Origin: Austropuccinia psidii
Lineage: Eukaryota > Basidiomycota > Pucciniomycetes > Pucciniales > Sphaerophragmiaceae
Reading direction: 5' to 3'
Assembly: GCA_023105745.1 (NCBI GenBank)
Contig: JALGQZ010000011.1
Location: forward strand, 31,804,612-31,868,611
DNA length: 64,000 nt
This document shows, in pieces, positions 17,722 to 51,410 of this stretch; the stretch's first letter is position 1; every line of letters starts with the position of its first letter. The translations under genes and the position numbers were made by a program. The notes below the pieces were generated by a model that was not told the DNA's origin, did not search any database, and saw only the letters and a program-made list of their open reading frames with translations.

Positions 17722-19160
17722 TGTCAGGCTGAGTCTATGATAAAGGTGTATATGAGTATTTACAAGCTTTAACTATGACTGTGACACGGTAAAAATGGTT
17801 TTAAAAGATGATAAGATTGATAATAAATGATTTAATTTAAGATTTAAAGGGCTTTACTATAGAGATATAGTGGTGGTGAGCGCTGTTGAAAGCCCTGGGT
17901 GCAGCTTTACCTGTTGGATTACAATAATAAAGACTACAATACTTTAAATTAAGAGTATACCTGATTATTTAACCAAGAGTAAAACTGTTTTTGACAGTTT
18001 ACTACGTAGGTTATTCAAGAGCAGGATGAGGAAAGGTTTTTGGCTGTGAAAAGCCCTCCTTTTATCCTGAAATTGAGGTGGAAAGGCTGCTAGACCTTTC
18101 CACGTAGAGGAAGTGAAGATTTTTCACTCTCCAGGACAGGCTTGTGGTTTGCAAACAGCCTGTATACCCTGTATTGGGCTCAGATGTGGTTTTGAAACCA
18201 CATCTGGGCAGTTTTCACCAATACAGGGTGCAAGTTTTCATCTGGGGACCTCACAGCCTGATTCTGACGTGTATGATGCGTAGAATGCTGTACAGAAACT
18301 GTATGGGACCCCAGTATTGACTGACATATGAGGTATTGAAGTAAAAACATGCTTCTTTGTCTATTTGACACCTCATATTCATGGTTATGGGATATTATCC
18401 CATGGTAAGGCTGTATCTGACAGCAGGTGGGATTTTGACCTTAAAATGGTCATAACTCTGTCAGTTTTTGAGGTATCAAGCTCAAAGTTGGTTCATTGAG
18501 TAGCCCTGTATGGGCTCTACACAATGGTACCCAACTTGACATGGTTATCATTAAATATGACAAAGTTATCCCATGTACAAGTATTTTTGTACATTAGCGT
18601 GGTCTGGTCAAAAGCTGTATTAAGCTTGTTTGGCCAATAACTTCTGTTGTAGTTGAGTTATGAGGAAATGGATGGCACCATCAGATAGCCCTGATTGTGC
18701 TCTTTCCAAAAAGACCCCACTTTAGGTATCTCACACTAAAACTGTAAAAGTTAGATGAGAGGTGAATGTTTTGTTCACCCTTATTTGGTCTGAATTTGAC
18801 CATAACTCAAGTAATACTGGTGCTAGCTCAGTTTGGCTGGGACCATTGGATAGCCCTGGCTTAGAGCTTCATTTTGAATACCCATTTGATGGGGTTAAGC
18901 CTCTCCTTCTAGATTTTAGATGAGAGGTGAAAATTAAGGTTTATGCTCAGCAATAACTTTGAGCAGGAATAACTTTGTTATTTCTTGTCCTATGGTGATG
19001 GGACTTATATTTTCAGGAAGAGGTGAGTTTCCTCTTTCTTTTGATACCTTTTGAGCTAATTTGGCTCAGCTTCATGTTTTGGTGGTATTTTGGCTATACC
19101 ATTGGTTTATGGTGTTTTGGTTGTCATGCTTGTGCTCTGGTTTTGAGTCACAGGCTGACA
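17722..19160 (-). repeat. 3' LTR of element A
   Basis: Bounded by TGTCAGGCTG and CAGGCTGACA, which form unusually long near-perfect terminal inverted repeats. It lies next to the polypurine tract, so it is the 3' LTR on the minus strand. It carries a 62-bp nested hairpin at 18167-18228. Confidence 0.95.
18167..18228. repeat. Nested perfect hairpin in the A LTR
   Basis: The inner arms CAGATGTGGTTT and AAACCACATCTG (12 bp, perfect) are separated by only TG. The outer arms CCCTGTATTGG (18167-18177) and CCAATACAGGG (18218-18228) are also perfect over 11 bp. The same structure is at 26427-26488. Element B keeps the inner arms at 52467-52492 and, with one change, at 42525-42550. It could be an RNA structure in the transcript or a protein-binding site. 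Confidence 0.85.
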
Positions 19161-19184: not shown

Positions 19185-22100
19185 TCATGGATGAGACTGT
19201 TCAGTCCTCCTAGAGGCTCTGAATCTCCTTAAATGGAGGTTCCCATCTGGTATGGCATCCTCTGCCAACCATTTGTCTTTGTCAGCTGTCTGGTTCTTGA
19301 ATCTGACTAGATATTGTCTCTGATCCTTCCCATTGAGTCTGATTTTTCTGGCCCTGATGATTTTACTCACAGGTCCAGGAGAGTCTTCTACTTCCACTAT
19401 TTCTGGTGGAGTGATGTTTTTCTTCCTGGAGGGGAATTTATCCTCTTCTGTTTGGAAGTATGGTTTGACCAGGCTTACTGGAAAGACTGGGTGTTTCCTA
19501 GGAAACTCCTCAGTGAGCTTGACCTCTACTGCATTCTTCCCTATCAACTTAATGATAGTGAAGGGCCCTACAAATGAGTCTCTCATTTTCTTGGGTCCTT
19601 TGAGATTGTTAAAGTTTAGTGTGGACACTAACACCTGGTCCCCTTCCTTGAAGTCAGGTTCCATATGTGATTTGTCCCACCTCTGCTTATTATACTCTTT
19701 GGCCTCAGCTATGCATTTGGCAGCAGTATCACAGGCTTTCTTCCACATATCATGGAAGTCTTTGGCTGTGGGGTGGATGGTCAGAAGATTTTTCTTCAAG
19801 TGATCCACAGGTAAAAGGGGATTCCACCCTTTCTCTACCAGGGAAGGTGTTTTTCCTGTGGTAGAGTGCTGGCTTGTATTATAAGCCAGTTGGACTGCTG
19901 GTAAGAGGGTGACCCAATCATGGGTATATCCCTCATGGTCCTTGTATTCCATGCCATAGGCACAGAACCTCCTGAGGATGTCCTCCATTGTTTGGATCAT
20001 CCTCTCAGCTAGGCCATCTGTTTGTGGATGGTAAGCTGTGGAAAAAGCAAGCTTGGTGCCTAGCATGTCATATAAATTGGTCCAAAATTCAGATGTGAAT
20101 TTTGGGTCCCTGTCACTAATTATGATCTTAGGGACTCCACAGGTGGATATGATGTTATTCCAAAATAACAGAGCAGTGTCCATGGCTGTGTCCTCTTTAT
20201 GGCATGGTAGACATCTCATACTCTTGCTGAACCTATCTACTATGATTAGGCAGGCATTGTAGTTTTCTTTGCCTCCTGGGACAAGTCCTGTGACCCAGTC
20301 CATGTTGATGGTTTCCCATGGGTGTTTGGGTTCTTCTATGTGTTGAAGCAACCCATATTTTTTCCCATGTTTTCTATTTGCCTTTTGGCATCTTTCACAA
20401 TTGTTGATGTATTCACTCAACTCTTGCTCCCACTTGGGCCACCAAGCTGTGCTTGCTACCCTCTCTTTAGTCCTGTCCTCACTCATGTGTCCCATGTAGG
20501 GGCAGTCATGGCATTCCTGCAGGATTAAAGAGATGTGGTCTCTGTCTATCACTGTGAGTGCACTGGTGTGCTTTTCTCTGTGATAAATCAGGCCATCTAT
20601 AAGGAAGAATTTATTGTCCTTATAGGCCCTCAACCAGGGTTCCTCCAGCTGGGTTTCCAGTTCTGGGCTCCTGTATTTTTGTTGAAGGAGTTGGAGTAGT
20701 ATGCTACACTGTTTGTGTTTAGCATAGGATTTCAGTACTGCATTGAAAAATTCATTGTGCAATTCTGAGGAACTTATTCCCAGTATGGGGGTTTCTGTCC
20801 CTTCTGAATCAGTGTTTCCACTGTCAAGGGTACCACTCCCTGGTGCCCATTCAGAGAATCTGAAGTTCTTTTTCCTATTTATTTCCATAAAATGGATAGG
20901 AGTTTTTGCAGCAACTTCAGGGTTATAAGCTGGATTGCTTTTGACATTGTCCAGTGGCCATCTGCTAAGGCCATATGCATTGGTATGGCTTTTACCTTCC
21001 TTGTATATGATGGTCATGTTCCCTCTATACTCCCGGATGGCTATTTGCCATCTCAGCATGTGTCTATTAGTAGTCTTCATGTTTAGTAAAGACTTCAAGG
21101 CTGTGCAGTCTGTGTAGACTTCAAAGACTGCACCCTCCAAATAATAATGGAGTTTTTCTAGAGCCCAGACTAGACATAGACATTCTGTCTGGGTGGCCCC
21201 ATACCTGGCTTCTGAATCTTTCAGCTGCCTGGAGATGTGACATATTACATCTTCTCTTGGTTCACCATCCACAATTTGTCTTTGGTGAAGGGCTGCTCCC
21301 AAGCCTTGGCTGCATGCTGCATCTATATATAACTTGAATGGTAGTTCAAAGTCAGGCAAGATGAGTACAGGTGCATTTGTGAGTTCATATTTGATCCTCT
21401 CATATGCATCCCTCCTTTCCTTGGTTATTTCAAAAACTACATCCTTTGAGCATAACTTGTATAAACTACTAGTTATGTGGGCAAAGTTTTTGATGTGGTT
21501 TCTATAGTAGCTAGCAAATCCAAGGAAAGATTGCATCTCTTTGATGTTCTTTGGTACTGGCTTTTGCAGTACTGCTTCTACTTTATTCTGGTCAATTGCC
21601 AGACTAAGGCCTGAGACTTTGTGTCCTAGAGCTAGTAGCTCTTGTTGGCCAAAATTACACTTTTTAAGTGAAATTTTCAGATTGATGGGTGTACATTTAC
21701 TTAGCACTCTGTCTATGTATTGTACATGGTCTTCCCATGTCTCTGAGTATATAATGATATCATTAATATACACTACCATCCAGCCTTCCATTATTTCTTC
21801 TTGAAATATGGTGTCCATCATCCTTTGGAAGTGGGCTGGTGCATTCTTGATGCCAAATGGCATCCTGATGTACTCATATATGCCCATATGGCATATTATT
21901 CTGAGCAACTTCATGGAATTTGGTTTAACTCCATTTTGGTGGAAGCCTTTCATACAATCCATCTTGGTTATGTATTTGGCTTTGGCTAGCTTATCCAAGG
22001 CATGAGGTATCCTTGGTATAGGGTACCTGTCTGCTTTTGTGTAGTTATTCAGGGCTCTGAAATCTCCACACAATCTAGACTTGCCATCATGCCAGGTGAT

Positions 22101-25040
22101 TAGGACAGGAGTGGTGATTTCCACTATTTCATTATGTCCAATCTTCCTAATGACATCCATGTCCAGGAGTTCATTGATATGTTTCTCAATCTCTTTCCTG
22201 GTCTCCAGACTTGCTGGGTAAGGAGGTCTCCTTAACATGGGTGGATAAGGCCTTTCCACATCCAGATATAGTTCTATATCATGGCCTTTGATCTTGCCTA
22301 ATGGTTCTTCACCAATGGCAAATGCTGGTCTATTCTTCCTCAGCATCTTCAGTAAACTTAACTTTTGTTTACTGGTGAGGGTAGTGCTAAACTGTCCCTC
22401 TCTGAATTCTTTCAGAAGTTCTTCCAGTGGGTCCTGAGAAGATATCTGGTATATATCAAGAGAAAATTTCTTTTCCTTGTTAGTACCAATGGTAATATGC
22501 CTATTTTTACTATTGTAAATATCTATGCCATACATCCTCTGGTAATCTGTTCCCAGTAAAAACCCTTGGATGTGGGCATCTTCAAGCACTACAAACTCTG
22601 GGTTGAGTCTGATATTACCTTTTCTGTGGGGTATAATTATCTCTTTGATAATTGTCCCAATAGAGGTCATCTTTCCAGATGCACTCTTAAGGTTCTTTGC
22701 CCTGGTGGGCAAGAGTTCTTTTTCCCAGTTTGGGAAGTGGTTATCCAGATAATTTCTGGCCACTATGGAGCAGTGTGCTCCACTGTCAATGATCAGTGGA
22801 TGCTGAGCATTGTCAATACATACAGTCATTTTTGTGGCTGTTCCATGTATGTATGCCATTCCTTTGGTTGGTGTAACCAGGAATGTTTGTGCATCTTGTG
22901 TATGTTTACACAAATTCTTGTTGGCAGTGTCTTGTGGCATTCCTGCTTCCAACTGTATATCCTGAATTTCTAGTGGGGTTTCCTCTTGGTATTCCACTAG
23001 AAGTTCCTCTCTTGGGTCTTGATCCTCATCAGATGGTTCTCTAATGGCATCACCCATAGAGTCTGATTCAGAATCCTCTGTTGGAGGTTCTTCTTCAGGG
23101 ACTTTTTCTATAGCATAGACTTTCTTCTTTGCTTTTGGACAGTTGTTGGCATAGTGGTCTGTTGAACCACAATTGTGACAAGAATTCTTCTTCTTTGCGA
23201 CTTCTGCCACTCTTTCTCTGGGTTTGTCTTTAAACTCCACCCTGAAAGGTTGTTTCTCTTTGAAACTACTGCTTCTATATGGGGTGAATTTCCCTATATT
23301 AGTCCTTTTCCTTATGTCTTGTAAGGTATTGGCTATATCATATAGAGTGCAATTTTGGTTGCATCTGCATTTTACTGCATGCTCTAGTTCTCCTGGCAGT
23401 TGTGTCAGAAGTTTATGATTCCTCATTTGAATGTTCATTTGAGGATCAATGGCTTTAAGTCTTTTAGACTGTCTAAGACACCACTCATATGGATCTTTGT
23501 CCACAGAGTATTTGTCATTTTCAAATGACATGGTCTTTTGCCATATCCAAGTTCCATTACTGTACTTTTGGATTATTTGACTCTTCCACCATGGCCAATT
23601 TCTTCTGCCATGGATTTCTTTCATTTCAGTGTACCATATACTTGCATGACCTTTAAATGCAGTATTCAGTCTAGCAGTAATCCAGTAATCTGGTATGCTT
23701 GGTACATCAATGAAGAGTCCATCAATATAATCTATGAGCTCCATATGATCATATTCTCCTGATCCAGAGAATTTGGGCCAGTTTGAGGCCTCAGGAAGCT
23801 GTTTCAAGGCTTCCTTCTCTGAATAAGACATGCCATCTCCATCCTGGTATTGTGATGGAGATCTTGCCTTATTCAACAACATGGCATCTGGTTTGATGTC
23901 ATCTGGTTGATATGGATTCTCCATAGCTTGGCCTTGTGGTTGGGGCTTTAAGCTATGGTAGGCATCAAAAAATTTGTTGATGTCTTGGTTCAGACACTCC
24001 CTGTCCCTGCTACTATGGTGTTGTTCTTCAGAGACCTGATTCAGTCTCTTGTTGGTTTCTTCAGAGGCTTTGCTCAGTTGAGCATATCCTTCTTGAAGGT
24101 TTTTAACTATCTGCTCCAATGAGGCTTGAGTTTTTCTCATCCTCTCTTGGGCAGATGCAAATTCTGTAGCCTGCTTTGCAGATTGCTCAGCATATTGGGA
24201 CATTTGTAACCACAGTGTGTCACTGTTGATGTTACTCTCAGATGTGATAATATTATTTTCAGTCTGAGTGGGGGTAATGTTTCTATTACTAGGACTACTG
24301 ATTCTAGAGTGGTTTACAACTACTTCTGGTTCTTGTGTACTTCTTTTACCAAATCTAACAGCTTCTGGATCATGGGGTCTGACTCTTTCCTCCTCTGGTT
24401 GAAGGAGGCTTTGTTCTTGCCCTTGTTGCCTTGTCTTCTCCTGGAAACTTCCTGGAGTTGTGAAGAATGGTGACTCTTGGCCACTGATCTGCTGGTTTCT
24501 GAATGGTGTGAAGCCACTGGAGAGCTGATTTTGCATGCTCCTTGTGAACCTGAAGGAATCTGAGTAGGCCCTGTCTGGGTTAACCGTTCTTCTATAGCTT
24601 GGATAGTGGCTTGATTCTCCCTTATCCTCTGTGCCCTTGCCTCCAGGAGTCTGTGCTGCCTGGTAGGATTCCAACCCTTGGTGATTACCATAAGGTCTTT
24701 GAAGTCTATCTCTTTGAGACAGATCTTCTGGCAACTTGATCCCAGTTCTGCCCAGTGAGTTGCTAGGTTGAACCTCTTGTTGTCCATGCTCCATTGAAAC
24801 AAATCTTTGAGGAGTTGGTGGATTTGAAGAACTTAATCCATATCCTTCCAGTCCTCTGGTTTGAGGTTTCTGTTGAATTGGAGTGTGAATGGCAAGGTTG
24901 ATATTATCTCCCTCATTGTTTTGCCATCCACCACTGTGTCCAATGTGTCTTCTTTCAGGTCTTCTGGTTCTAGACATTCCTGCTCTATCCTCTGGCTGGT
25001 TCCTTTGGAAGCCAAGGTCTCTGAGGTATGCAGGGGACAT
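19185..25040 (-). CDS. gag-pol: Gag-Pol polyprotein of element A, 1951 aa, with RT and RNase H active-site substitutions
   Basis: One uninterrupted frame. The N-terminal 240 residues are low-complexity and overprinted by ORF1. A predicted coiled part and the capsid-like region follow (tryptophan-rich around 470-520). The zinc knuckle is C621-X2-C624-X4-H629-X4-C634. The protease site is DSGA with Asp752. RT follows. At the YxDD motif the sequence is YINDII: Asn1093 replaces the first catalytic Asp (codon 21762-21764, AAT). RNase H keeps Asp in LYIDAA and Glu in TECLCLVW, but Tyr1356 replaces the Asp of NADGLSR (codon 20973-20975). Integrase has an HHCC finger and D1581, D1643, E1679, the last two exactly 35 residues apart. 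A chromodomain-like end (about 1905-1945, QYLVRFKN...KWLAEDAI) should guide integration to chromatin. B and D1 keep Asp at both changed sites, so the changes are derived. The ATG follows the stop of the upstream frame by one base (TGATATG). Confidence 0.93.
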
Positions 25041-25388
25041 ATCAGTGTTTGCAAGCAGTCAAAAACTTTATGTTCTTAGGGTATTTACCTTTGACTGTGC
25101 CTTGTACAAATTTGTTATCTGCTGATTTGGGCAGTTTGCCTTTGGAGGTTACAACTGGGTTAAGAATTGTAATCTTCCCTGTACAAGTGGTTAAGGTTGG
25201 TTTACCTTGTATTGAAGCAGAGTTTTGTGGTTTTCTACTCCTCTGAGTGGCTATTGGTGTCCACTTCTTGGCTGTAATGAGGCCTTCACTAAGCCTTTTT
25301 CCTTTACCCTTGCTGCCCTCTGGTTCTGAGGGTGTCACTGGTGTGTTGGCCTGTGACTGGGTTTCAAGTGGGATGTAGTTTTCTTCCA
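24320..25388 (-). CDS. ORF1 of element A: predicted spliced, overprinted on gag
   Basis: No known family. Proposed exons are a leader ending at 25935 (base A), 25388-25089, and 25020-24320. Intron 1 (25934-25389) has donor ACAA|GTAAGT and acceptor GATTCAG|TG, so the start codon ATG (then GAA GAA) is made by splicing. Intron 2 (25088-25021, 68 nt) has donor AAAG|GTAAAT, branch CACTGAT and acceptor CCTCAG. It joins the upstream frame exactly to the alternate gag frame. The product would be 333 codons: a basic N-terminal third, a helical tryptophan-containing segment ([10 protein letters not shown]), a K/R-rich linker ([11 protein letters not shown]) and a short terminal helix ([10 protein letters not shown]). 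One TAA (24833-24835) interrupts it here; B has CAA at that site. Role unknown. B keeps both splice sites of intron 2 and its 68-nt length. Confidence 0.6.
25021..25088 (-). other. Predicted intron 2 of ORF1 in element A, containing the Gag-Pol ATG
   Basis: GTAAAT...CTCAG, 68 nt, with CTGAT about 20 nt before the acceptor. The Gag-Pol ATG (25040-25038) overlaps the branch region. The intron length shifts the frame as needed to enter the alternate gag frame. B has the same intron, same length, at 51109-51042. Confidence 0.6.
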
Positions 25389-25934
25389 CTGAATCAAGAC
25401 AGGAAAAAGAGGGCTTATGTCAGTTAAGACTTCTTAAAAGGCTGGTTTTGCACGTCTAAGAATGGCCTCTGGGCTTGTATATTATTACAATATGCCCTTG
25501 TATAATGACAGTGTAATTGAATTAACAATTTCACGTCAAAAATACAGCTTATGGTGCCCTGTCACACTGTTTGTGTGCCAGTATCCCACAGATACACTTG
25601 TGGTTTTCAAGTGTATTCTGTACAAGTGGTTTTGTATAAGTGTTATTGAGTCAACAATACACTTAATCCACGCCTCAACTGATGGTTTTTCAGTCAGAGG
25701 TGTCCTTATTCAGTCACGAATACAGGACATATTGATGGCTGATGTGTTTTTATATACAAAACACGCCAAAAATAATTATTTTCAGTGGGTATTAGCCACG
25801 TGAAAAATACTCTTTTATAATATGAGTATATGAAAAAAGATAAAAATATATAAAATATATATATTTAAATGGAGATTACGCCTAAAAAAGATAAAAAATG
25901 TGTTAATAAGTCATAAAAAAGAGAAAAGACTTAC
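25389..25934 (-). other. Predicted intron 1 of ORF1 in element A
   Basis: Donor ACAA|GTAAGT is 47 nt inside the 5' LTR edge, just past the PBS. The acceptor has a long pyrimidine run ending GATTCAG. Removal joins a terminal A to TG, making ATG in a good context (ACAATGG). Two minus-strand ATGs in this leader (25730 and 25914) open only tiny frames, and both lie inside this intron. Confidence 0.55.
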
Positions 25935-25981: not shown

Positions 25982-27420
25982 TGTCAGGCTGAGTCTATGA
26001 TAAAGGTGTATATGAGTATTTACAAGCTTTAACTATGACTGTGACACGGTAAAAATGGTTTTAAAAGATGATAAGATTGATAATAAATGATTTAATTTAA
26101 GATTTAAAGGGCTTTACTATAGAGATATAGTGGTGGTGAGCGCTGTTGAAAGCCCTGGGTGCAGCTTTACCTGTTGGATTACAATAATAAAGACTACAAT
26201 ACTTTAAATTAAGAGTATACCTGATTATTTAACCAAGAGTAAAACTGTTTTTGACAGTTTACTACGTAGGTTATTCAAGAGCAGGATGAGGAAAGGTTTT
26301 TGGCTGTGAAAAGCCCTCCTTTTATCCTGAAATTGAGGTGGAAAGGCTGCTAGACCTTTCCACGTAGAGGAAGTGAAGATTTTTCACTCTCCAGGACAGG
26401 CTTGTGGTTTGCAAACAGCCTGTATACCCTGTATTGGGCTCAGATGTGGTTTTGAAACCACATCTGGGCAGTTTTCACCAATACAGGGTGAAAGTTTTCA
26501 TCTGGGGACCTCACAGCCTGATTCTGATGTGTATGACGCGTAGAATGCTGTACAGAAACTGTATGGGACCCCAGTATTGACTGACATATGAGGTATTGAA
26601 GTAAAAACATGCTTCTTTGTCTATTTGACACCTCATATTCATGGTTATGGGATATTATCCCATGGTAAGGCTGTATCTGACAGCAGGTGGGATTTTGACC
26701 TTAAAATGGTCATAACTCTGTCAGTATTTGAGATATCAAGCTCAAAGTTGGTTCATTGAGTAGCCCTGTATGAGCTCTACACAATGGTACCCAACTTGAC
26801 ATGGTTATCATTAAATATGACAAAGTTATCCCATGTACAAGTATTTTTGTACATTAGCGTGGTCTGGTCAAAAGCTGTATTAAGCTTGTTTGGCCAATAA
26901 CTTCTGTTGTAGTTGAGTTATGAGGAAATGGATGGCACCATCAGATAGCCCTGATTGTGCTCTTTCCAAAAAGACCCCACTTTAGGTATCTCACACTAAA
27001 ACTGTAAAAGTTAGATGAGAGGTGAATGTTTTGTTCACCCTTATTTGGTCTGAATTTGACCATAACTCAAGTAATACTGGTGCTAGCTCAGTTTGGCTGG
27101 TACCATTGGATAGCCCTGGCTTAGAGCTTCATTTTGAATACCCATTTGATGGGGTTAAGCCTCTCCTTCTAGATTTTAGATGAGAGGTGAAAATTAAGGT
27201 TTATGCTCAGCAATAACTTTGAGCAGGAATAACTTTGTTATTTCTTGTCCTATGGTGATGGGACTTATATTTTCAGGAAGAGGTGAGTTTCCTCTTTCTT
27301 TTGATACCTTTTGAGCTAATTTGGCTCAGCTTCATGTTTTGGTGGTATTTTGGCTATACCATTGGTTTATGGTATTTTGGTTGTCATGCTTGTGCTCTGG
27401 TTTTGAGTCACAGGCTGACA
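25982..27420 (-). repeat. 5' LTR of element A
   Basis: 1439 bp, same length and ends as the left LTR, differing at about 8 positions. It carries the same nested hairpin (26427-26488). It should hold the promoter and leader of the element's transcript, read leftward. Confidence 0.95.
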
Positions 27421-29014: not shown

Positions 29015-30937
29015 TGTGAGCCTTGAGGTATATTTTACATACCCAAATAGGCCACAATTATCTTAAAAAGAAGTTTTGAATTATGCAAAACTCATAAGTC
29101 ATGCATATATCCAAAATTCATCATTTTCAATTTGAGAAAAGATGAATAACTTTTTATTGAGTAAGTAAATCCATGGATTTAAGACCAGATTTGGATTCTA
29201 CACAAAAATTCACCTAGGGTAGCTCCATAGAGTGAATAAGCTCAATTTAAGTATTTGAGGTGGTAAAATGGCAAATACTTCAATACCACATCATTAATAC
29301 CACATAAAAGATTCGTGAAAATTTTTGTTTTTCTTGATTTTTAGCCAAAATAATCGGAAAGTGAGAAATCCCATGTTACATATACACTAAGAATAGTGTT
29401 ATGCATGTTTTGAGCACTTAATATCATGGTATTCTTACATGGACTTTTGGTACACCCATAGTGGATATCTCACTTTAAGCTTAAAATTACTATTTTGACA
29501 TAAAAATTAGGCAAGGGGGACAAAAGACATCAAAGAGAGCCAGGGTACCCAACTTCTGAGGCCTCAGAGGCGTGGATAGCTCCAGAGCATGGATCCATGG
29601 CTCATCTTGGCCCAATTGGTAAACTAAACCTCTTTGGGAACTTGGTTACCAAGTTACACCTACTGTAATTATAAGAAAAATAGCAAATAACCTGCTATTT
29701 TGACATGCCAAGGAGGTAATAAGCTACTTAGGCTCCTGTAACCACGTCAATTTTTGATGACTTTCCATGACTAGACCCTAAAAGAGTAATTAAACCCTTT
29801 TGGGATCCATATTTATTGATTTACCTCATAGCAACCAGCAAAATACTGCTATTTGCAATTCTACGTAGAAATGAGGTAAAAACTTCAAAAATTCATTAAA
29901 AATACAATTCTTAATGAATCTTCCTGAAACTTTCAGGACCAATGAAGAACTGTATTATCTATGGTACAACCAAAAAGAATTATGGTTTTACTAGTAAAAT
30001 TAAAAGTTTTACTTACAGTCCCTTTTTGACCATTCTACGTGAAACACTGAATCTTCAAAAATTCACAGTAATTACAACCTGTGATGAAATTGGCAATAAC
30101 ATTGATAACTTTGAGAAATCAATTATTATTTTAGAATAAAAGAAGATTTACAGATGTTACGCCTTTTATTCTTAACCATATTGGGGTTGGTAGTCACGTA
30201 AAAGCATCAATTAAGTAATTATGATAATCTTACGTGACAACAGATGATGCAATCATTAATCCAAAAGGGTTTATTGTTTTCTCACTCACTGGTTTTTCAG
30301 TTTGCTCCATGGCACGCCTCTGTGAGCTGTTGTTGACTTAAAAGAAGCCTATTCTTGCTGTTTTTTCCATATCATCATCTTATCAATTTATTAAATCATT
30401 ATTACCAACAAGTAAGTATTAGTTAAAGCTATTCTTAAGTGTTTTAAATCTTTCCAAATCATCCAGAAAGACGTGAAATCCTAGAATCCAACTATATATT
30501 GTTGTAATACTGTTATAAATCTTTTTGATCCCTTAAATCCACAATTCTACGTCAAATTTCTCTACTCTTATCTATCAAAAAGTTCTTTGGAGTATTAGTG
30601 AGTCATTTATTCTTAATTCTTAAAGTTTTTCTCTAGTAATAGTTTTCTTCAAGAATTATCTTTATAATTATTCTTGCAAAAGATAATTATATATTAAAAT
30701 AATTTTATTATTTTAATAAAGAAGTTTTTATTATTAAATTCTTCTTGTAATTGATTCTTGTAGACAATTACTTGCTCACTGTTAAAATCACTAGTAGTGC
30801 TTAACACGTGAAAGAAATAATTTTTTAATTATTTAATTGTGGTTATAATAATATTTTATTATTATATTTCATAAGAACAGACATAGTACTGTTGATTAAT
30901 AGTAATATTATCACCAGTTTCATAGTCACATCTTACA
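29015..30937 (+). repeat. 5' LTR of element D1
   Basis: Starts TGTGAGCCTTGAGGTATA and ends CATCTTACA. GGTAT and ATACC form a short inverted repeat near the start, shared with families C and E. A donor-like ACAA|GTAAGT lies at 30408-30417. AATAAA at about 30715 could be the poly(A) signal. After the ATG at 30309 there is no further ATG to the LTR end. Confidence 0.95.
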
Positions 30938-31324
30938 TTTGGGGGCCTGGCCGTGTTTTTTGAACCTTGTACCCTTAATTAATATATTTTTAAGCTCTAA
31001 AATATATTAATTCAATAATTTTTTCTTTCATTTTAAAGTTAAAATAATTCTTATTTTTGAAATTGTTTTGGAAATCTTTTTCATTGAGGAATTTGGTTTA
31101 ATTTTATACTGTTTTACACGTGGCTTTTTCACATCCAAAAACTTATAAAATTATTCTTTGAGTTACTCTGAATTAATTTTCATTCAAAATCTTAAATTTT
31201 AATTTTTTCCTTTAAAAAGAATAATTTTTTTAATATTAAAAAAATAATAAAATTCATAAAAAATCTTTTAAAAATATCTTAAAACACAAAAATAATTTCT
31301 TTTATCATATTTTTTCTCTTTAAG
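30412..31324 (+). other. Predicted intron 1 of ORF1 in D1
   Basis: Donor ACAA|GTAAGTATT in the LTR, acceptor after a strong pyrimidine tract (TTTTTTCTCTTTAAG|TG), 913 nt. The intron removes the PBS and leader. Joining A to TG creates an ATG followed by TCTTTAATC. D2 keeps both sites (donor near 56451, acceptor at 57343). Confidence 0.55.
30940..30955 (+). other. Primer-binding site of D1
   Basis: TGGGGGCCTGGCCGTG begins two bases after the LTR. It is identical to the A site (25978-25963) and near-identical in D2 (56958 on). Confidence 0.7.
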
Positions 31325-32313
31325 TGTCTTTAATCAAATACTCTGCAGCTGGTAACAGACTCAGTAAAAGATACATCAATAGTCCAGAATCTTCAGAAGC
31401 AGAATCTGAAGACAGTATTGAGGTGCAGATTGCTAAAAGAGGCACCTTATTCAACTCAGAAAAAGCTAAATTACCACCAAAAGGTGTGTATTTTTATCTT
31501 TTATTTTCACCTTTTATCTTTAAATTGACGTGAAAATGGTGCATACCAGAAATGGAAGCAACTATTCAGTCCAACCAGATGGATGTGGACAAGGAAGAGG
31601 CAAGACCAAATCCAGAAGTGCCAAATCTTCCACAAGAAAGACACATCTGGAGGATGCCAGAGTTGCCCCCCATTCCCCAAGGTCTGTACCAACAGATTTT
31701 GACGTAAATTCTGAGCCTGAACTGATTTATGGTAATATTTCCAGGGCTGAACCACTTTCAGGTGGCAGCAATAGAAATTTATCAATGCCAGTACAAAAAC
31801 TGGTTCAGAGCAGCCAAGGAAGAGGAGTGGGAAATCTGCCCAAGCCTTTGGCAGGGGGCCATGAACTCCTACTTACACATCAAGAGCTTTCTGGGTCAGG
31901 AGAAGACCATAGAACTCTTAGGAGGATGGAGCCCCCTGTCTTGCAAAGACAAGGTCAAAAAGATAAAGAATTGGTTGAAGAACCAAAGTCTTTTATCCAT
32001 AGACCAGAAGAAAGAGTTGGAAATGACTCCAGCTTTGGAGACAGAGGCACCAGTGGCATCTACCAGCTCCAAACCAGCTCCAGAAGCGCCCAAGGACAAG
32101 CCCAAAGGACCTCAAAAGAAACAGAGAGGTCCCAAGAACCATCAAGGCAAGGGCAAAGGCAAAGCCAATTGGCACAGACCTTACCCACAAGGGTACAGGA
32201 TCCCCAAATTGGAGCCTTCAGTCGTGGACAGTGTCTTCAATATGGCCAGAACTCTTATGGAATTCACAGCCAAGGAGCAGGAAAGGATGAACAGGACTTT
32301 TCCACGCAAATAA
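31325..32313 (+). CDS. ORF1 of element D1: predicted spliced, overprinted on gag
   Basis: No known family. Coding exons are 31325-31483 and 31745-32313, with the first base of the start codon from the leader exon ending at 30411. Intron 2 (31484-31744, 261 nt) has donor G|GTGTGT, branch CTGAT and acceptor TTTCCAG, and keeps phase. The product is 242 residues with no stop. An acid/serine N-terminal part is followed by a helical tryptophan-rich part ([20 protein letters not shown]), a basic linker ([16 protein letters not shown]) and a terminal helix ([16 protein letters not shown]). The order of parts resembles ORF1 of A, although I see no residue-level match. The overprinted Gag portion is low-complexity, and the ORF1 frame looks the more protein-like of the two. 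If intron 2 were retained, the frame would stop at 31531-31533, two bases before the Gag ATG. A start at Met 31729 without splicing would give 194 residues. Confidence 0.62.
31484..31744 (+). other. Predicted intron 2 of ORF1 in D1, containing the Gag-Pol ATG
   Basis: GTGTGT...TTTCCAG with CTGATT about 20 nt before the acceptor. It is 87 codons long, so the upstream frame continues into the alternate gag frame. The Gag ATG at 31536 lies within it, so a spliced RNA cannot make Gag-Pol. Confidence 0.55.
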
Positions 32314-39370: not shown

Positions 39371-42085
39371 TTCCCTTCCACCAAAAATGATTGTACCACA
39401 ATGTGATATAGTTAATTTGGGTATCATCCACTGTCCTACCTCTTCATTAGACTTTATTAGTCTTGAAGCTCAATAATTCTTAAGCTTTTCTATTCTTTAG
39501 GTCTTCTTTCATGTCTAAACCTCCTTAATAGCTTATCAGCATGAGCTATGTGCTTCTAAAGTAGCCATTCATATTCTTCAGTTGGGTTTCTATACCTTAC
39601 AAGGTATTACCTTTCTTTTTTGTTTCTTGTCCTCCTTTCTTTAAGGACTTTTAAAGTTTTATTTTCTTCTCCTTATTCTAGAGGGGGAATCTCAAGTAGT
39701 GGTTTATTTATTAGGGAAAATAACTCTTTATCACTCAAGCTGTAAGGATTTATCAGATCCACAGGGAAAGCTGTGTGTTTCTTCATTAATTTGGTCTTCA
39801 ATTTAGTTGAACAGCATTAGGGCCATGTAGTGCTCTTATACTAAAGGGTCCTTAAAAGGAATATTTCAATTTCTTTTGTAATTTAATGTTATTAAAGCAT
39901 ATAGTTGATACTAAGAACAAGTCTCCTACTTTAAAGTCAGGTGGCTTATGACTTTTGTCCCATCTTTCTTTTGCATATTTGAATGAATCTTTCATACATC
40001 TGTTGGCATGATGCCTTTATTTTTCAAGAATTATTTTGAATCTGCTTTCTGTTGGATTTATATTAGCTAAGTCCTTTTTGAGAGTATCATAAGGAAGTCT
40101 TGGATTACAGCCTTTTTCTAACATTGCTGGTGTTTTGTCAGTTGAATAATGGATTTATTTCTTATATGCCAGTTCAAGAGTTGGTATGACGGTACACCAA
40201 TCAACAGTAAAACCATCAGAGTCTTTGAATTCTAGTCCATAAGCATATAATCTTTTGATCATTTTTTCTAAAGCTTGTATCATTATTTCTGATAGACAAT
40301 CAGCTTGGGGGTGGTAAGCTGTTTAGAATGATAACTTTGTTCCAAACAAGTTATGGAGATTTTTCCATAATGCTGAAGTTAATTTTGGAGCTCTATCACT
40401 TATGATGTTTTGGAATAAGCCTATATGACTAATGACTCTATTCCATATCATTATGGCTTTGTCCATAGATGTGTCATTTTTATGAAATGGTAAGAAAATT
40501 GGGGTTTTGCTGTACCTGTCAACTAGTACTAGGCATGCATCAAAACTCCTGTCTCTTCCTGGAGTTAAGGCTGTTACCCAATCCATGTGAACTATTTCCC
40601 ATGGTTAATTTGGTTCCTGGATTTGGATCATCATTACAAATTTCTTTCCTGTTGCTCTTTTTGCTTTTTGACATCTGTCAAAGATTTGGAAGTACTCTGC
40701 AAAATCCTTTCTCCAATTTTGACACCAAGAGCATGTTTTCACCATCTCTAGTTTTGTATCTTCTGAGTGTTGTCCAGATACAACACTATCATGACATTCA
40801 TTTAGGATAGTTTTATCAGATTCCTATCTGTTGAGGTCATAACACATGTGTGTTTAGTACTATGATAAGGGATTCCATCAAGTAGGTGGAATATTCCTTC
40901 ATCATATGCTTTTTTCCATATTTAATCTAGTTTGGAGGATAGTGATAGGTCTTTGCAATATCTCATAAATAGTTGGCATGAGATATGACAATTTGTGTTC
41001 ATCTTGTAGTTTTCTTTGACTTGATTAAATAATTCTGTGCCAGTGTCTGTGACACAAATGCATGCTATAAAATGCTGTTCCTGTGGTACCCATGCTGGGG
41101 TTTCAGGTGTATTTGCTAAATACCATCTGCTAAAACCATTGGAATTTTTATGAATATTTCCATATTTATGAACCATGGCTTCTCTAGCTCTTGGGATAGC
41201 GGGGTAAGCTGATCTTCTTTACAGGGGTTGAGAAGATTTTTTCACATTAAGAGAAATATCTATATCATGTCCAAAGATAGCATCTAGTGGTTCTTTGTCA
41301 GTTTTAAAGCCACTTTTATGTTTAAATAAGAGATCAGCCAATCTTTCTTTAGTTTTTTCTGTTAATATTTAATTAAATTCTGCCTGTATAAGTTTTTCAC
41401 TTATTAATGAATGTCTTTTTGGGCTTTTCTCTTCATTTTCAATAACAGTAATTTTTCCTTTTATTTTTTAAAAACAAAATTTCTGTCTTTTATTGTCTTC
41501 TATTGTAAAATATCTGTCTTTCTGGTTAGAGATATCTACACCATAGATTGACAAGTAATCATTCCCTGATATGAAATGGTTACTAGTACAGTTTTCCATT
41601 ACTATAAACTCTACTTTCACTCTTATACATTGGGAAGGGTGAGGAAAAATTATTGTCAAGTAAATTATTCCAAGGGCCTTCATGCTCTCACTTGCACTCC
41701 TAAATCTAACCCAATTTATTGTTATACATTTTTCTTCCCAATCTGGTATGATTGTTTTCAAAGAAATCTTACCAACACAGGTGCAGTATGCTCCTGTGTC
41801 CAGGCTTACCTTTTCCTATTTGTTTTCTACCATTAAAATACTTATACTTGACTTTCCAGCTGTGCATCCCACTCCTTTTGCAAGTTTGATTCTATGAAGC
41901 TTGGCATCTTGTATGTTTGTGAGGCTTGTATAAGATGTTACAGCCTGTGGTAAGCTTGAATTTAGATCTAGTACTTCACATTAAATAAATATTATTAATT
42001 TTTGCATTGATTTTATAAATTTAATCACTTTCATAAGTTTCTGACTCTTCAGTGTCTTTTGAAGAGGCAGATTCATCTGCTTTAT
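39371..42085 (-). pseudogene. Decayed gag-pol of element G with RT region deleted
   Basis: Minus-strand pieces match the D1 polyprotein: the chromodomain/tail (about 39480-39800), integrase (40323-40586, MDWVTALTPG through ISDRAPKLTSALW), the region after RNase H (40922-41176) and the protease (41468-41800, with DTGAYCTCVG intact). At about 41175-41182 the start of RT (PRAREA) runs straight into the end of RNase H (MVHKYGN). D1 has about 1.19 kb there, so RT and RNase H are deleted as a block. Stops and frame changes are frequent. Gag is cut by the B LTR at 42086. Confidence 0.8.
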
Positions 42086-43504: not shown

Positions 43505-46500
43505 TACCCTCCCTCCAAAAATGGCTCATCATTGATGAGACTTCTCATTCCTCCTAGAGGCCCTGAATCTTTTTAGATGAAGGTTCCCATCTGGTATGGC
43601 CTCTTCTGCCAACCATTTGTCTTTTTCTGCTGTCTGGTCTTTACCATTCAGCCTAATCTTCCTGGCCTTGATGATTTTCTTCACAGGACCAGGGGAGTCT
43701 TCCACTTCCACTATTTCTGGTGAACTGGGATTTTTCTTCCTGGAGGGAAACTTATCCTCCTCTGTTTGGAAGTATGGCTTAACCAAACTCACTGGGAATA
43801 TTGGGTGGTTTCTAGAAAATTCCTTGGTGAGTTTGACCTCCACTGCATTCTCCCTATCAGTTTAATAATAGTGAAGGTCCCTAAAAATGAGTCCCTCATC
43901 TTTCTTGGTCCCCCAAGGCTGTTGAAATTGAGTTTGGACACTAACATCTGGTCCCCTTCTTTGAATTCAGGTTCCATATGGGATTTGTCCCACCTCTGTT
44001 TGTTGTATTCTTTTGCCTTGGCTATGCATCTAGAAGCTGTATCACAAGCTCTGTTCCACATATCATGGAAGTCTTTGGCTTTTGGGTGGATAGTCAGAAG
44101 ATTTTTCTTCAGATGATCCACAGGCCATAGGGGGTTCCACCCTTTGTCTACCAGGGAGGGTGATTTCCCTGTGGTAGAGTTCTGGCTTGTGGTGTAAGCC
44201 AGCTGGACTGCTGGTAGAAGGGTAACCCAGTGATGGTCCTTGTATTCCATGCCATATGCACAGAATCTCCTGACAATATCTTCCATATTTGGGATCATCC
44301 TTTCTGCTAAACCATCTGTCTGTGGATGGTAAGCTGTAGAGAATGCAAGTTTTGTACACAGAATGTCATAGATATTGGTCCAAAATTCTGATGTCAATTT
44401 TGGGTCCCTGTCATCAATGATGATTTTTGGGACTCAACATGTGGATATTATTTGATTCCAAAATAACAAAGCTGTATCCACTTCTGTGTCCTCCTTGTGA
44501 CATGGTAGGCACCTCAGACCTTTACTGAGCCTATCAGTTATGATCAGGAAAGCATTGAAGATTTCTCTGCCTCCTGGGACAAGTCCTGTGACCTAGTCCA
44601 TGTTGATGGTTTCCCATGGGTGTTTGGGCTCTTCTATGTGTTGAATGATCCATACTTCTTCCCATGTTTTCTGTTTTCCTTCTGGAATCTTTCACAAGTG
44701 TTGATAAATTCACTCAACTCTTTTTCCCATTTGGGCCACCAAGCTGTGTGTGAGCCTTGGAGGTATTTTCATATACCCAAAAGACCACAAATAACAAAAT
44801 AAGATACAAATATAAATGAAATTAATTTATTTATATTATCAAAATAAAAATTATAATATAAATACAAATTTATATACAAAAATAAAAAGACAATTCTAAT
44901 TTAAAATGAAACTTACATAAGATTTTAAAATTATGAAAATGCATTTTTACTTGAAAAAATTAATTAAATTGAAATACTTTTGGCAATGGTTACATTGAAT
45001 ATATTATAACTTTTTATCAAATAAATAAAATTAAGAAAATTACTTCACCATTGGATTCCTCATAAACAATAAGGTAGTGTCACCTCTGGGTAAAATTTCT
45101 GTAACTCAACTCTAAATAAGCTTAAATCAAGTTTTTAGTATTTTCTGTACAAAAGTTGAAAATCCTCAAAACCTTAGTTTAATTCACACCACATGTGGTG
45201 TAAACCATCAATTTTTGTGTTAAAATTGAGGTGTTGTGTGTAATCTAGAAGTTATGAGGAATTTAAGTATTTTCAATTGAAATATCAAAATGTGTGAATG
45301 TATTACATGAGTGCACTTTAATGTAAATATGAGGTATCAGTTATTACAGTTGTGTACTGTAAAATCTCAATTGAATTATATGTGTAAATTAGAAGTGTAT
45401 TATATGATGAGAAATTAGAGGAAAAATAAATTGGAAAGATTAGTTCTGGGGGAGCCAGACCCCCAAAGTCCTTCCTGACAGGCATGGGATCTCAAAATCC
45501 ACACAAAAGTTCATCACTTTTTGCCTGGAATTGAGCTACAGTGTCTGCAACTCAATTGATGATGAGGTTTTGATACCAACCAGGGTGGTTTTAACTGTTG
45601 CCAAGAGGGTAAAACTACCCTTAAGTTAAAACAATGTTAGTAAAAACAGTCTTAACTGGTTTCTACGTCTCTTACACACATTCTGACGTGTTTTGAAGGC
45701 TCTAAACTAGGTATTACTATATTAATGGTTGATTTAAGGGTCTATAATGGCTAAAACCAGCCCTTTTTGGCCTAAACCAGGGTTCAATGATGCCATAATT
45801 GGCTTTTCTGTTGTCAGAGTGTTTTTCACGACTGACAAGAGTAAGCTGTACTTTTGGAGCAAGAAAATTGATGGCTATAAAAGAATTTCTTCTTTGCCTC
45901 ACTTTTCTCTTCATGTTAGAATCTTTTCCTTTTATAATTAGTTTAAACACTGTTAAACCAATCAATAAAAGATTCCAACCACCCTTTTTATATCATTTCA
46001 AACCTTCTAATCACTTGAAAAAATCATTATAATCATTTTTTGTAACTCTTATAATCATTTTTATCCCTTGAACCACCCCATAAGTGAGTTAAAGCATCTT
46101 TCATCACTGTTAACTTTCTCACTTGGTTTACAAATTCACTCTGGTCACTTTTGGGCATGCTTTCTCTTTAAATACCTTTTTAAAGACTTTGTTCTTCAAT
46201 TAATTTCTTACAGTTCTTTGCTCAATTCATTCCAATTGAAATTGCTCTTGAAGAAATTTCTTTTGTAGCCATAAATATCTCTTGTAGAGTATTTTTGGAT
46301 AACTTTTTATTGTTGGTCAAACAATAAATCTTTATAATATCATTTTTTATACTTATAAAGTTAAAAACAATAAAATTGGCTTGTTTTCTCTTAAATATAC
46401 TATTTCATAATTTTTTTCAATTATTTTTTTTACCTTATACAAATTTTTGAGGACAGGAAAAGTACTTGATTTTTTATCAAAGTTTCATATCCACACCGTA

Positions 46501-49500: not shown

Positions 49501-51061
49501 TTTGGACTGTCTAAGACACCACTCATATGGATATTTTTCCACATAGTACTTGTCATTTTCAAATGACATTGTATTTTTCATATCCAAATACCATTGCTGT
49601 ACCTTTGAATAATCTGACTCTTCCACCATGGACAGTTTCTTCTCCCATGGATTTCCTTCATCTCTGTGTACCATATACTAGCATGACCTTTGAATTCTGT
49701 ATTAAGTCTAGCATTAATCCAGTAGTCTTTTACGCTTTTGAAATCAATGAAGAGTCCATTAATATAATTAATGAGCTCCATGTGATCATATTCTCCTGTG
49801 CCAGTGAATTTGGGCCATCTTTAGGCCTCTGGAAGCTTTTTCAAGGCTTTCTTCTCAGAATAAGACATATTATCTCCATCTTGGTATTGAGATGGAGATC
49901 TTTCCTTATTCCCCAATAGGGCACCTGGTTTGATGTCTTCTTGGTGGTAAGGATCATCCAAAGCATGGCCTTGTGGTTGGGGGTCCATGTTTTGGTAGAC
50001 ATTAAACAATGTTTTTATGTCCTGATCCAGACAGTCCCTGTCCCTTTTGCAGTTGTTTTTCTATTCAAAGACTTGATTCAGTATTTTGTTGGTTTCTTCA
50101 GAGGCTTGGCTCAATTGAGCACAGCTCTCTTGGATGGCTTTAATTTTAGCCTCTTGTAAGATTGCATTTCTTTGCAATCTTTCATTCATTCTCTTGAAAT
50201 CATCAAGTTGTTCTTGATTTTTCACTGCTAATGGGACATTTGTAACCACATTTTATCACTGTTTAGGATACTCTCAGGTGTAATAACATTAGGTTCTATC
50301 TGAGTGGGATTAATATTTCTATTAGTGGGGCTACTGATTCTAGAAGTATTTACAACTATTTCTGAGTGTTATGTACTTTTTTTACCAAGTCCAACAGCTT
50401 CTGGATCATTGGTTCTGAATCTCTCTTCCTTTGGTTGAAAGAGGTCTTGTTTTTGCCCTTGTATCCTTGTCTTCTCCTGGAAACTACCTGGAATTGTAAA
50501 GAATGGTGACTCTTGGCCACTTATCTGTTTGTGCCTGAATGGTGTGAGGCCACTGGAGAGGTGGTTTGGTCTACTCCGTATGAGCCTGAATGAATCACAG
50601 TAGGCCCTGTCTGGTTCAGCTGTTCTTCTATAGCTTGGATAGTGGCATGATTCTCCCTTATCCTGGTTGCCCTCTCCTCCAGGAGTCTGAACTGACTGGT
50701 GGGTTTCCAACCTTTGGTTATTTCCATAAGTTCTTTGAGACATATCTTCTTGCAACTTGCTCCAATCTCTTCCCAGTGGGATGCTAGGTTGAACCTCTTG
50801 TTGTCCATGCTCCATTGTAAAAGATCTTTGATGAGTTGGTGGAGCTGAAGAACTTGATCCATATCCTTCCAGTACTCTGGTTTGAGGTTTTGTTTGAATT
50901 GGAAAGTGAATGGCAGAGTGGGTATGATTTCCCTCAATTTCTTGCCATCCACCACTGTGTTCAAGGTTTCCTTCTCCAGGTCTTCTGGTTCTGGACAAGC
51001 CTTCCCTGTACTCTGGCTGGTTCCTTGGGATTCAAAGGTTTCTGAGGCTTACAGGTGACAT
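43505..51061 (-). pseudogene. gag-pol: Decayed gag-pol of element B
   Basis: Collinear with the 1951-residue A protein but broken into many frames. Pieces include the chromodomain end (43529-43843), integrase C-terminal part (43789-44397), protease to RT start (47971-48768), RT/RNase H (47225-47779), zinc knuckle region (48708-49250), capsid region (49405-49781) and gag start (50369-50998). The Gag ATG at 51061-51059 is soon followed by TGA. RT still reads YIDDII (about 47795-47815) and RNase H still NADGLSR (near 47006), the ancestral states missing in A. The zinc knuckle has Phe/Tyr-type changes. Solo LTR C1 interrupts the integrase finger. Confidence 0.88.
44749..46502 (+). mobile_element. 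Solo LTR C1 inserted in the integrase region of B
   Basis: Starts TGTGAGCCTTGGAGGTATTT. Its end (gaggacag...gtact...tttcatat..) aligns with the ends of the D1 and E LTRs, with the last two bases AG instead of CA. The 5-bp duplication CTGTG is at 44744-44748 and 46503-46507. There is one LTR, no PBS, no polypurine tract and no coding sequence, so the interior was lost by LTR-LTR recombination. It splits the sequence for the integrase zinc finger (STA-WWP). Confidence 0.8.
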
Positions 51062-51410
51062 ATCAGTGTTTTCAGGCAGTCAACAACTTAATTTTCTTAG
51101 GTTATTTACCTTTTACTGTGCCTTGTATATATGTATTTTCTACTGCTTTGGGAAATTTTCCTTTAGAGGTTACAACTTGGTTAGTTATTGTCATCTTCCC
51201 TGTACAACTGATTAAGGCTGGCTTACCTTGTATTGATGAAGAGTGTTGTGGGTTTCTACTCCTCTGGGTGGAAATTGGTGTCCACATTTTTGCTGTTATG
51301 AGGCCTTCACTGTTCCTCTTTCCTCTTCCCTTGCTTCCCTCTGCCTCTGAGGGTGTCACTGGTGTGTTGGCCTGTGACTGGGTTTCAAGTGGTATGAAGC
51401 TTCATTCCAC
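50521..51410 (-). pseudogene. ORF1 of element B, spliced plan still visible
   Basis: The acceptor GATTCAG|TG (51410 region) is followed by GAA TGA, a stop. The upstream frame then runs to donor AAAG|GTAAAT at 51109. The 68-nt intron (51109-51042) ends in CCTCAG, and the alternate gag frame is open from there to 50521, about 170 codons. Residues match ORF1 of A ([26 protein letters not shown]) and CAA stands where A has TAA. The first donor (near 51985) has become CAT|GTAAAA. ORF1 has thus stayed open across gag while the main frame already had a stop just after its ATG. Confidence 0.6.

What the first reader, a model, noticed from the sequence alone, without database searches (positions are those of the whole stretch)
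24320..25388. Splicing appears to fuse an upstream frame to an overprinted frame of gag (element A)
Three frames near the gag start fit one spliced gene. A 68-nt GTAAAT...CTCAG intron with a CTGAT branch motif changes phase by exactly the amount needed to enter a frame that stays open to 24320 apart from one TAA. Element B keeps the same intron, same length, and an open continuation. The predicted protein (333 codons) has no family I recognise. Retroelements that make an accessory protein from a spliced, overprinted frame are known among retroviruses; I know of no such description for fungal Ty3/gypsy elements.
Basis: partly seen in the sequence, partly recalled or inferred. Interest (0 to 1): 0.9.

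Follow-up and report, generated by a model that had tools for sequence, protein, structure and literature searches.

The report
Splice-made accessory gene in rust retroelement
A very abundant jumping element in a rust fungus appears to use splicing to build the start codon of, and join up, a hidden second protein that shares its DNA with the front of the virus-like coat gene.

Summary
On the minus strand of element A (Ty3/gypsy, rust fungus), a 546-nt leader intron and a 68-nt intron would join ORF1 to a frame overlapping the first 240 codons of gag-pol (333 codons). The one TAA was seen only in this copy among 150 scored. The overlapping frame, X, has 1,043 database relatives (120 shown, 119 named A. 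psidii hypothetical proteins). In window pairs A/B and C/D, substitutions in the overlap are excess-synonymous in X (P = 0.0045, <0.0005), not in gag (P = 0.73, 0.77). Yet, given X, gag's lack of stops is far beyond chance: both frames look translated. Added here: a second family (C/D) has the same layout, and the unspliced leader is nearly ATG-free (A: 2 in 1,422 nt; C: 0 in 1,226). The X start codon exists only once the leader intron is removed (ACA-A|TG). Inferred switch: unspliced RNA makes Gag-Pol, spliced RNA makes X, a basic protein possibly acting like Rev or CERV. No RNA evidence was available, function is untested, and an unbiased genome sample for the selection test was not obtained.

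The parts
25982..27420 (-). 5' LTR of element A (TG..CA); partner 3' LTR 17722-19160; flanks agree with a 5-bp TSD TATAT
   Evidence: offset-8260 identity and printed ends; 99.4% identical over 1438 bp
25389..25934 (-). leader intron (ACAA|GTAAGT ... TTCAG|TGGAAG); splicing would make ACA-A|TG-G, the X start codon
   Evidence: acceptor CAGTG in 21 of 21, donor GT in 20 of 21 copies; the joined ends read ATG in 21 of 21
25089..25388 (-). ORF1 exon, first 100 codons of X; holds no ATG in any frame
   Evidence: A/B synonymous excess in ORF1 frame 20 of 46 vs 11.8, P=0.004
25021..25088 (-). intron 2, 68 nt; branch-like CTGAT 25045-25041; contains the gag-pol ATG (25040)
   Evidence: branch-site reading is from recalled motif knowledge
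19185..25040 (-). gag-pol ORF, 1951 codons (CCHC, RT, RNase H, integrase)
24320..25020 (-). X exon overlapping gag; TAA at 24835-24833 in this copy; natural stop TAG 24322-24320
51042..51109 (-). element B intron 2, same sites and length
   Evidence: A coordinates + 26021
30412..31324 (+). element C leader intron (ACAA|GTAAGT inside the 5' LTR 29015-30937; acceptor TTTAAG|TG), again making A|TG
31325..31483 (+). element C ORF1 exon
31484..31549 (+). element C intron 2 (66 nt; 63-66 nt in 21 other C-type sequences), contains gag-pol ATG 31536
31550..31681 (+). element C X exon 3, overlaps gag
31682..31744 (+). element C intron 3 (63 nt), gag-only stretch
   Evidence: 12 of 16 public C-type models read are joined across it
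31745..32313 (+). element C X exon 4 with stop, overlaps gag (X of C: 286 codons in all)

Best explanation
Two related Ty3/gypsy families of this rust carry a dual-coding 5' gene, X, controlled by splicing. Unspliced RNA has a leader almost free of ATGs, so scanning ribosomes meet the Gag-Pol ATG first or nearly first; that ATG sits between the branch-like site and the acceptor of intron 2. When the leader intron is removed, its two ends join as A|TG and create the start codon of X. Removing intron 2 then cuts out the gag start and fuses ORF1 to a frame overlapping gag's N-terminus, giving X. X is conserved, basic (pI about 9-10) and weakly predicted to be helical; the overlapping gag segment is kept open but is weakly or unevenly constrained. 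SHOWN (sequence): sites, phases, frame constraint, open gag frame, ATG-poor leader, second family. INFERRED: the RNAs and proteins themselves. MORE SPECULATIVE: X is an early regulator that lets unspliced genomic RNA leave the nucleus (as Rev or Cer1 CERV do), about 35%; a Gag cofactor or RNA chaperone is the main alternative.
For: Window pairs, not chosen by similarity: A/B overlap X syn 39 of 109 (26.5 expected, P 0.0045), gag 24 of 109 (26.2, P 0.73); C/D X 27 of 55 (14.8, P<0.0005), gag 13 of 55 (15.0, P 0.77); downstream gag-only is normal, A/B 47 of 149 (32.5), C/D 73 of 161 (35.3). Sites with a minor letter in >=4 of 54 divergent copies: X 48 of 129 vs 31.9 (z 3.5), gag z 0.7, although copies were picked by gag-frame similarity. 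Given X, gag has 0 stops vs 6.6-8.8 (permutation) or 12-16.5 (pol usage), P <= 0.0002, in 4 A-type and 4 C-type copies. ATGs in the leader: A 2 vs 13.3 expected, C 0 vs 12.7; young A copies (n=21) 1.33 vs 13.1, C-type (n=22) 1.05 vs 7.2, divergent A-type (n=62) 6.3 vs 14.3; the antisense word CAT averages 15.7, 6.7 and 16.2 in the same sets. Joined leader ends read ATG in 21 of 21. Of 202 listed public A-type models, 85 carry motifs of both ORF1 and X, 47 with the exact junction pattern.
Against: No RNA or peptide evidence. Nearest-neighbour pairs of mostly decayed copies (27 pairs from 54 of 62) show no significant synonymous excess over the whole overlap in either frame (X z 1.0, P 0.16; gag z 0.7), and in its middle third gag, not X, has the excess (gag z 3.7; that third lies inside the gag-frame query). 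At the stricter count (8 copies) the middle and 3' parts also lean to gag (z 2.1, 2.0) and only the 5' part to X (z 4.0). C-type copies were selected by X similarity, so their z of 8.6 is inflated; their exon 3 alone is not significant (z 1.5). Conditional on gag, X openness in A-type copies is only marginal under permutation (P 0.06-0.12). Public models are of unknown evidential basis, some use other splices or internal ATGs, and only one of the 202 A-type models matched my pattern for the predicted N-terminus (P0051; the pattern misses others such as P0269). A-type and C-type X are not detectably homologous by profile; one pairwise test is weak (P 0.016). Structure models are poor.
Confidence: 0.75

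Rival explanations
1. X is made without splicing, by leaky scanning to an internal ATG of the overlapping frame (24916, 198 residues in copies without the TAA); ORF1 is incidental.
For: Several public models start there (for example P0008, P0014, P0016).
Against: ORF1 is constrained in its own frame yet holds no ATG; the 5' part of the overlap, which includes X residues before 24916, is conserved in X (z 2.4-4.0); splice sites persist in 20-21 of 21 young copies; C-type intron 2 varies between 63 and 66 nt while the exons on both sides stay open in most copies.
Confidence: 0.1
2. Gag-Pol is made by termination-reinitiation: on RNA that lost only the leader intron, ORF1 ends at a stop just upstream of the gag ATG and ribosomes restart.
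For: Stop-to-ATG gap is 1 nt in 17 of 21 young A copies, and 2 or 7 nt in 17 of 22 C-type sequences.
Against: That stop is part of, or beside, the branch-like site (CTGAT, TTGAC), which explains its place; in 62 divergent A-type sequences, most with earlier ORF1 stops, the 1-nt gap is seen in only 11, 3 of them without the ATG; the ATG-poor leader fits plain scanning on unspliced RNA.
Confidence: 0.12
3. X is a structural or RNA-binding partner of Gag (matrix- or chaperone-like), not a nuclear regulator.
For: Basic, with predicted helices, a basic linker and a C-terminal helix (models poor); shares its DNA with gag.
Against: It would come from spliced RNA that lacks the gag start, the plan of regulatory genes in complex retroelements (recalled); no test here separates the two.
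Confidence: 0.25
4. The overlapping frame is a chance open frame of an AT-rich element.
For: Elements A and B each carry a stop in it.
Against: Frame-specific constraint in two families, 1,043 and 889 database relatives, open frames of 194-254 codons in 149 of 150 scored copies (best-scoring rows).
Confidence: 0.02

Closest known systems
Cer1 CERV (C. elegans Ty3/gypsy; PMC10309623 abstract and passages, PMC3315495 passages)
   Same: Ty3/gypsy element; novel protein from a spliced mRNA, with one exon in a reading frame of its own; Gag-Pol from unspliced RNA
   Different: [quoted passage not shown] the passages read mention no splice-made start codon and no ATG-poor leader. CERV's role in RNA export is shown; that of X is not
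Rev/Rex-type regulators of complex retroviruses (recalled)
   Same: basic protein expected from multiply spliced RNA, overlapping other genes
   Different: homology not shown; location and export activity of X unknown
BARE1 spliced subgenomic RNA (barley; PMC3735527, passages read)
   Same: splicing separates protein products of one LTR element
   Different: there the spliced RNA encodes Gag itself; here it removes the gag start
MDG1-group sORF1/sORF2 upstream of gag (PMC11952523, passages read)
   Same: extra conserved frames upstream of gag in Ty3/gypsy elements
   Different: no splicing seen there; not fused to a frame overlapping gag
Yeast GCR1 (PMC7826247, passages read)
   Same: fungal gene whose unspliced RNA uses a start codon inside the intron
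   Different: a host transcription factor; the unspliced form only adds an N-terminal extension

Membership tests
Ty3/gypsy LTR retrotransposon | paired LTRs with TG..CA ends and short target duplication | tested here: met
   99.4% identical LTRs; TATAT read at both outer flanks
Ty3/gypsy LTR retrotransposon | RT - RNase H - integrase order in pol, CCHC in gag | tested here: met
   RT 986-1142, RNase H 1206-1338, integrase 1499-1672; CCHC 620-636 just under its cut-off (19.6 vs 20.8 bits)
Ty3/gypsy LTR retrotransposon | primer binding site matching a tRNA | not tested
   TTTGGGGGCCTGGCCG follows both LTR types; primer not identified
Cer1/CERV-type spliced regulator | protein encoded by spliced mRNA in a frame not used by gag-pol | tested here: inconclusive
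   sequence architecture and constraint agree; no RNA
Cer1/CERV-type spliced regulator | sequence homology with CERV | not tested
   CERV sequence not compared; element not placed on a tree with Cer1
Cer1/CERV-type spliced regulator | needed for nuclear export of genomic RNA | not testable with these tools
   needs experiment
Rev/Rex-like protein | arginine-rich RNA-binding motif and leucine-rich export signal | tested here: inconclusive
   A-type last 55 residues net +8.7 with [11 protein letters not shown] and a predicted C-terminal helix; no signal predictor run
BARE-type Gag subgenomic RNA | spliced RNA still encodes Gag | tested here: not met
   intron 2 contains the gag ATG

The most novel reading that the evidence does not exclude
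A splicing-built start codon works as a molecular switch in a fungal 'complex' retrotransposon: early spliced RNA makes X, a Rev/CERV-like regulator; X then lets unspliced RNA accumulate and, because its leader has been purged of ATGs, that RNA makes Gag-Pol. The same device serves at least two families that probably helped fill a 1-Gb rust genome.
Probability: 0.33. Interest if true: 0.92.

Novelty: new variant of a known kind. Interest (0 to 1): 0.77.

Why it matters
Spliced accessory genes are a mark of complex retroviruses and, as far as I recall, are rarely described for LTR retrotransposons. Two abundant fungal families with a dual-coding, splice-started gene would extend this to fungi, show an economical RNA-level switch between two proteins, and give a large natural set of copies (150 scored in each, out of 14,598 and 38,534 first-look candidates) on which overlap evolution and intron retention can be studied. 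Practically, it says that hundreds of 'hypothetical' gene models of this rust probably belong to a retroelement protein.

Tried and rejected
Homology between A-type and C-type X by profile: none; pairwise z 2.9, P 0.016 is only suggestive, and the gag N-termini score P 0.15. Structure prediction: mean pLDDT 51 and 47, too poor for a fold search, so none was run. Solved structures: nothing for A-type; one weak hit for C-type (4ov4, E 0.003), judged chance without looking at its alignment. Viral contigs: none. Reinitiation as the main way to Gag-Pol: weakened once the stop was seen to fall in or beside the branch-like site. Fixed differences between two young subgroups were too few to test the overlap (2 of 698 sites, both synonymous in X and not in gag). 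Nearest-neighbour pairs in divergent copies gave no overall signal in the overlap. Eight of 62 divergent sequences were dropped before (L032, L040, L044, L054, L073, L079, L085, L087: poorly aligned, low identity or frame-shifted) and one of 22 C-type (L089) before the site counts. Occurrence in other rusts could not be judged: every name shown in the three 120-row listings is A. psidii; one row (P0029) has no name, and the rest of each list is not displayed. Literature: ten searches over the held open-access papers found no description of this design in fungi; subscription papers are mostly absent. Term searches inside two rust transposon papers found no mention of gag (PMC8063080, PMC12210899). 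Of the eight papers opened I saw an outline with abstract (one) and passages, never a whole text.

Full report
Setting. The window lies in a 1.015-Gb assembly; the names shown for protein relatives of the element are Austropuccinia psidii MF-1. Element A is a minus-strand Ty3/gypsy element with LTRs 25982-27420 and 17722-19160 (99.4% identical) and one gag-pol ORF of 1951 codons, 25040-19185.

Check of the observation. Coordinates, intron lengths, phase and the 333-codon total are right. The overlapping frame is broken by TAA 24835-24833, which sets this copy apart: the 149 other scored genomic places have open frames of 194-254 codons (the best 150 of 14,598 first-look candidates, so not a random sample). 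In A plus 20 fetched copies (20 of the 149 rows), intron 2 donor GTAAAT is kept in 21 of 21, acceptor CAG in 20, TGATATG in 21, leader donor GT in 20, leader acceptor CAGTG in 21; X is open in 17, the gag overlap in 18. In 62 more divergent sequences, A and B included, the figures are donor 52, acceptor 54, TGATATG 46, leader acceptor 52.

Which frame is constrained? The cleanest data are the two window pairs, which were not chosen by similarity (the random placement keeps base types but not CpG context). In the A/B overlap, 39 of 109 substitutions are synonymous in X (26.5 expected, P 0.0045) and 24 of 109 in gag (26.2, P 0.73). In C/D the numbers are 27 of 55 (14.8, P<0.0005) and 13 of 55 (15.0, P 0.77). 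Beyond the overlap gag behaves normally (A/B 47 of 149 vs 32.5; C/D 73 of 161 vs 35.3). ORF1 is constrained in its own frame (20 of 46 vs 11.8, P 0.004). Sites with a minor letter in at least 4 of 54 divergent copies agree (X 48 of 129 vs 31.9, z 3.5; gag z 0.7), and the overlap is less variable (0.19 of sites) than ORF1 (0.35) or gag alone (0.46); the copies were chosen by gag-frame similarity in part of the overlap, which lowers variability there and should favour gag, not X. At a stricter count (8 copies) X stays ahead over the whole overlap (z 3.1; gag z 1.5, P 0.07), but this comes from the 5' part (X z 4.0), while the middle and 3' parts lean to gag (z 2.1 and 2.0; X z 0.3 and 0.8). So in A-type elements both frames are probably constrained, unevenly along the overlap. 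C-type copies give X 44.8 of 59 vs 16.7 (z 8.6, sites with a minor letter in at least 2 of 21) but were chosen by X similarity; their short exon 3 alone is not significant (4 of 10 vs 2.2). Against: nearest-neighbour pairs of divergent copies give nothing significant over the whole overlap (X z 1.0, gag z 0.7; 5' third X z 1.8, middle third gag z 3.7), as expected if they mostly record decay after insertion.

Is gag really translated there? Holding X fixed and shuffling its synonymous codons, the gag frame would contain on average 6.6-8.8 stops (or 12-16.5 with pol codon usage); it has none (P <= 0.0002 in four A-type and four C-type copies). Given X, the third frame is as stop-rich as expected; given gag, it has somewhat fewer stops than permutation predicts in A-type copies (13-15 vs 19-20, P 0.014-0.039), so that control is not perfect. 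The gag frame is kept open, so both products seem to be made.

How are they started? ORF1 has no ATG in any frame (0 in all 21 A-type copies). The leader splice would join ...ACAA to TGGAAG..., forming ACAATGG; in C the same happens with TGTCTT, and the joined ends read ATG in 21 of 21 A-type copies (one of these, L018, has lost the GT donor). The unspliced leader is depleted of ATG: A has 2 in 1,422 nt (2 vs 13.3 expected in the last 944 nt), C none in 1,226 nt (0 vs 12.7 in 1,124 nt); young copies average 1.33 vs 13.1 (n=21) and C-type 1.05 vs 7.2 (n=22), divergent A-type copies 6.3 vs 14.3 (n=62); CAT, the same word on the other strand, averages 15.7, 6.7 and 16.2, though its own expectation was not computed. 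Two leader types, represented by copies that differ at 112 of 539 sites, keep this (0-1 ATG in seven copies, 1-3 in fourteen). Hence on unspliced RNA the first or nearly first ATG is that of gag, and on spliced RNA it is that of X. The start of the ATG-poor stretch also suggests the transcription start, inside the LTR.

Second family. Elements C and D (plus strand; C's gag-pol is about 47% identical to A's over residues 297-1945) share the layout: leader intron 30412-31324 making A|TG, short ORF1, intron 2 (66 nt in C, 63-66 in 21 other C-type sequences) holding the gag ATG, entry to a frame overlapping gag, plus a third, 63-nt intron. In those 22 sequences the leader acceptor reads AG|TG in 19, intron 2 ends in AG in 22, and the intron 3 donor is GT in 21; the leader donor is lost or not covered in 5. 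X of C has 889 database relatives, and 12 of the 16 I read are joined across intron 3. A-type and C-type X share order (helical part, basic linker, C-terminal helix) in poor models but no proven homology.

Public gene models. Of 202 A-type models listed, 85 hold motifs of both ORF1 and X and 47 of these show the exact junction pattern, a lower bound because variants escape the pattern. They are 'hypothetical proteins' whose evidence I could not see; several use other joins or internal starts.

Function. X is basic (pI 8.9-9.8 in six public models, one of which runs on into gag; +13 net in the 170-residue A piece) with no Pfam match above cut-off. Production from spliced RNA, absence of the gag start on that RNA, and the shown case of Cer1 CERV (PMC10309623: spliced mRNA, one exon in a unique frame, needed for export of genomic RNA) make a regulator of unspliced RNA my preferred reading at about 35%; a Gag partner or RNA chaperone is next. 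None of this is tested.

Limits. No RNA or peptides; no unbiased genome sample for the selection test (the reverse-transcriptase query did not complete); no view of other rust species. Novelty rests on ten searches of an open-access library plus memory.

Noticed in passing
L009-L028: Young A-type copies carry two leader-intron types: L011 and L009 differ at 112 of 539 leader-intron sites but at 8 of 698 in the overlap, so the leader seems to have been exchanged between lineages by recombination.
   Followed up: partly
e.g. C3:32975630 and C3:32983890; C10:17654657 and C10:17662918; C5:13986807 and C5:13995063: Some copies of the element lie about 8,260 bases apart, the LTR-to-LTR repeat length, so tandem arrays sharing an LTR (LTR-LTR recombination) seem to exist.
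   Followed up: no
window 44753-46498: Pol of element B is interrupted; sequence within the insert (45488-46429) is an inverted relative of 54056-55017. Not identified.
   Followed up: no
window 39493-41971, minus: Remnant of a third Ty3/gypsy family (pol pieces 27-50% identical to A); no 5' end was found between it and the LTR of B.
   Followed up: no
window 25981-25964 (minus) and 30938-30955 (plus): Both families have the same primer-site-like sequence TTTGGGGGCCTGGCCG after the LTR although their gag-pol is only about 47% identical; the primer tRNA was not identified.
   Followed up: no
window 30412 and 25934: In C the leader donor lies inside the 5' LTR, so spliced RNA would lose the primer site; in A the donor lies after it, so spliced RNA would keep it.
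   Followed up: no
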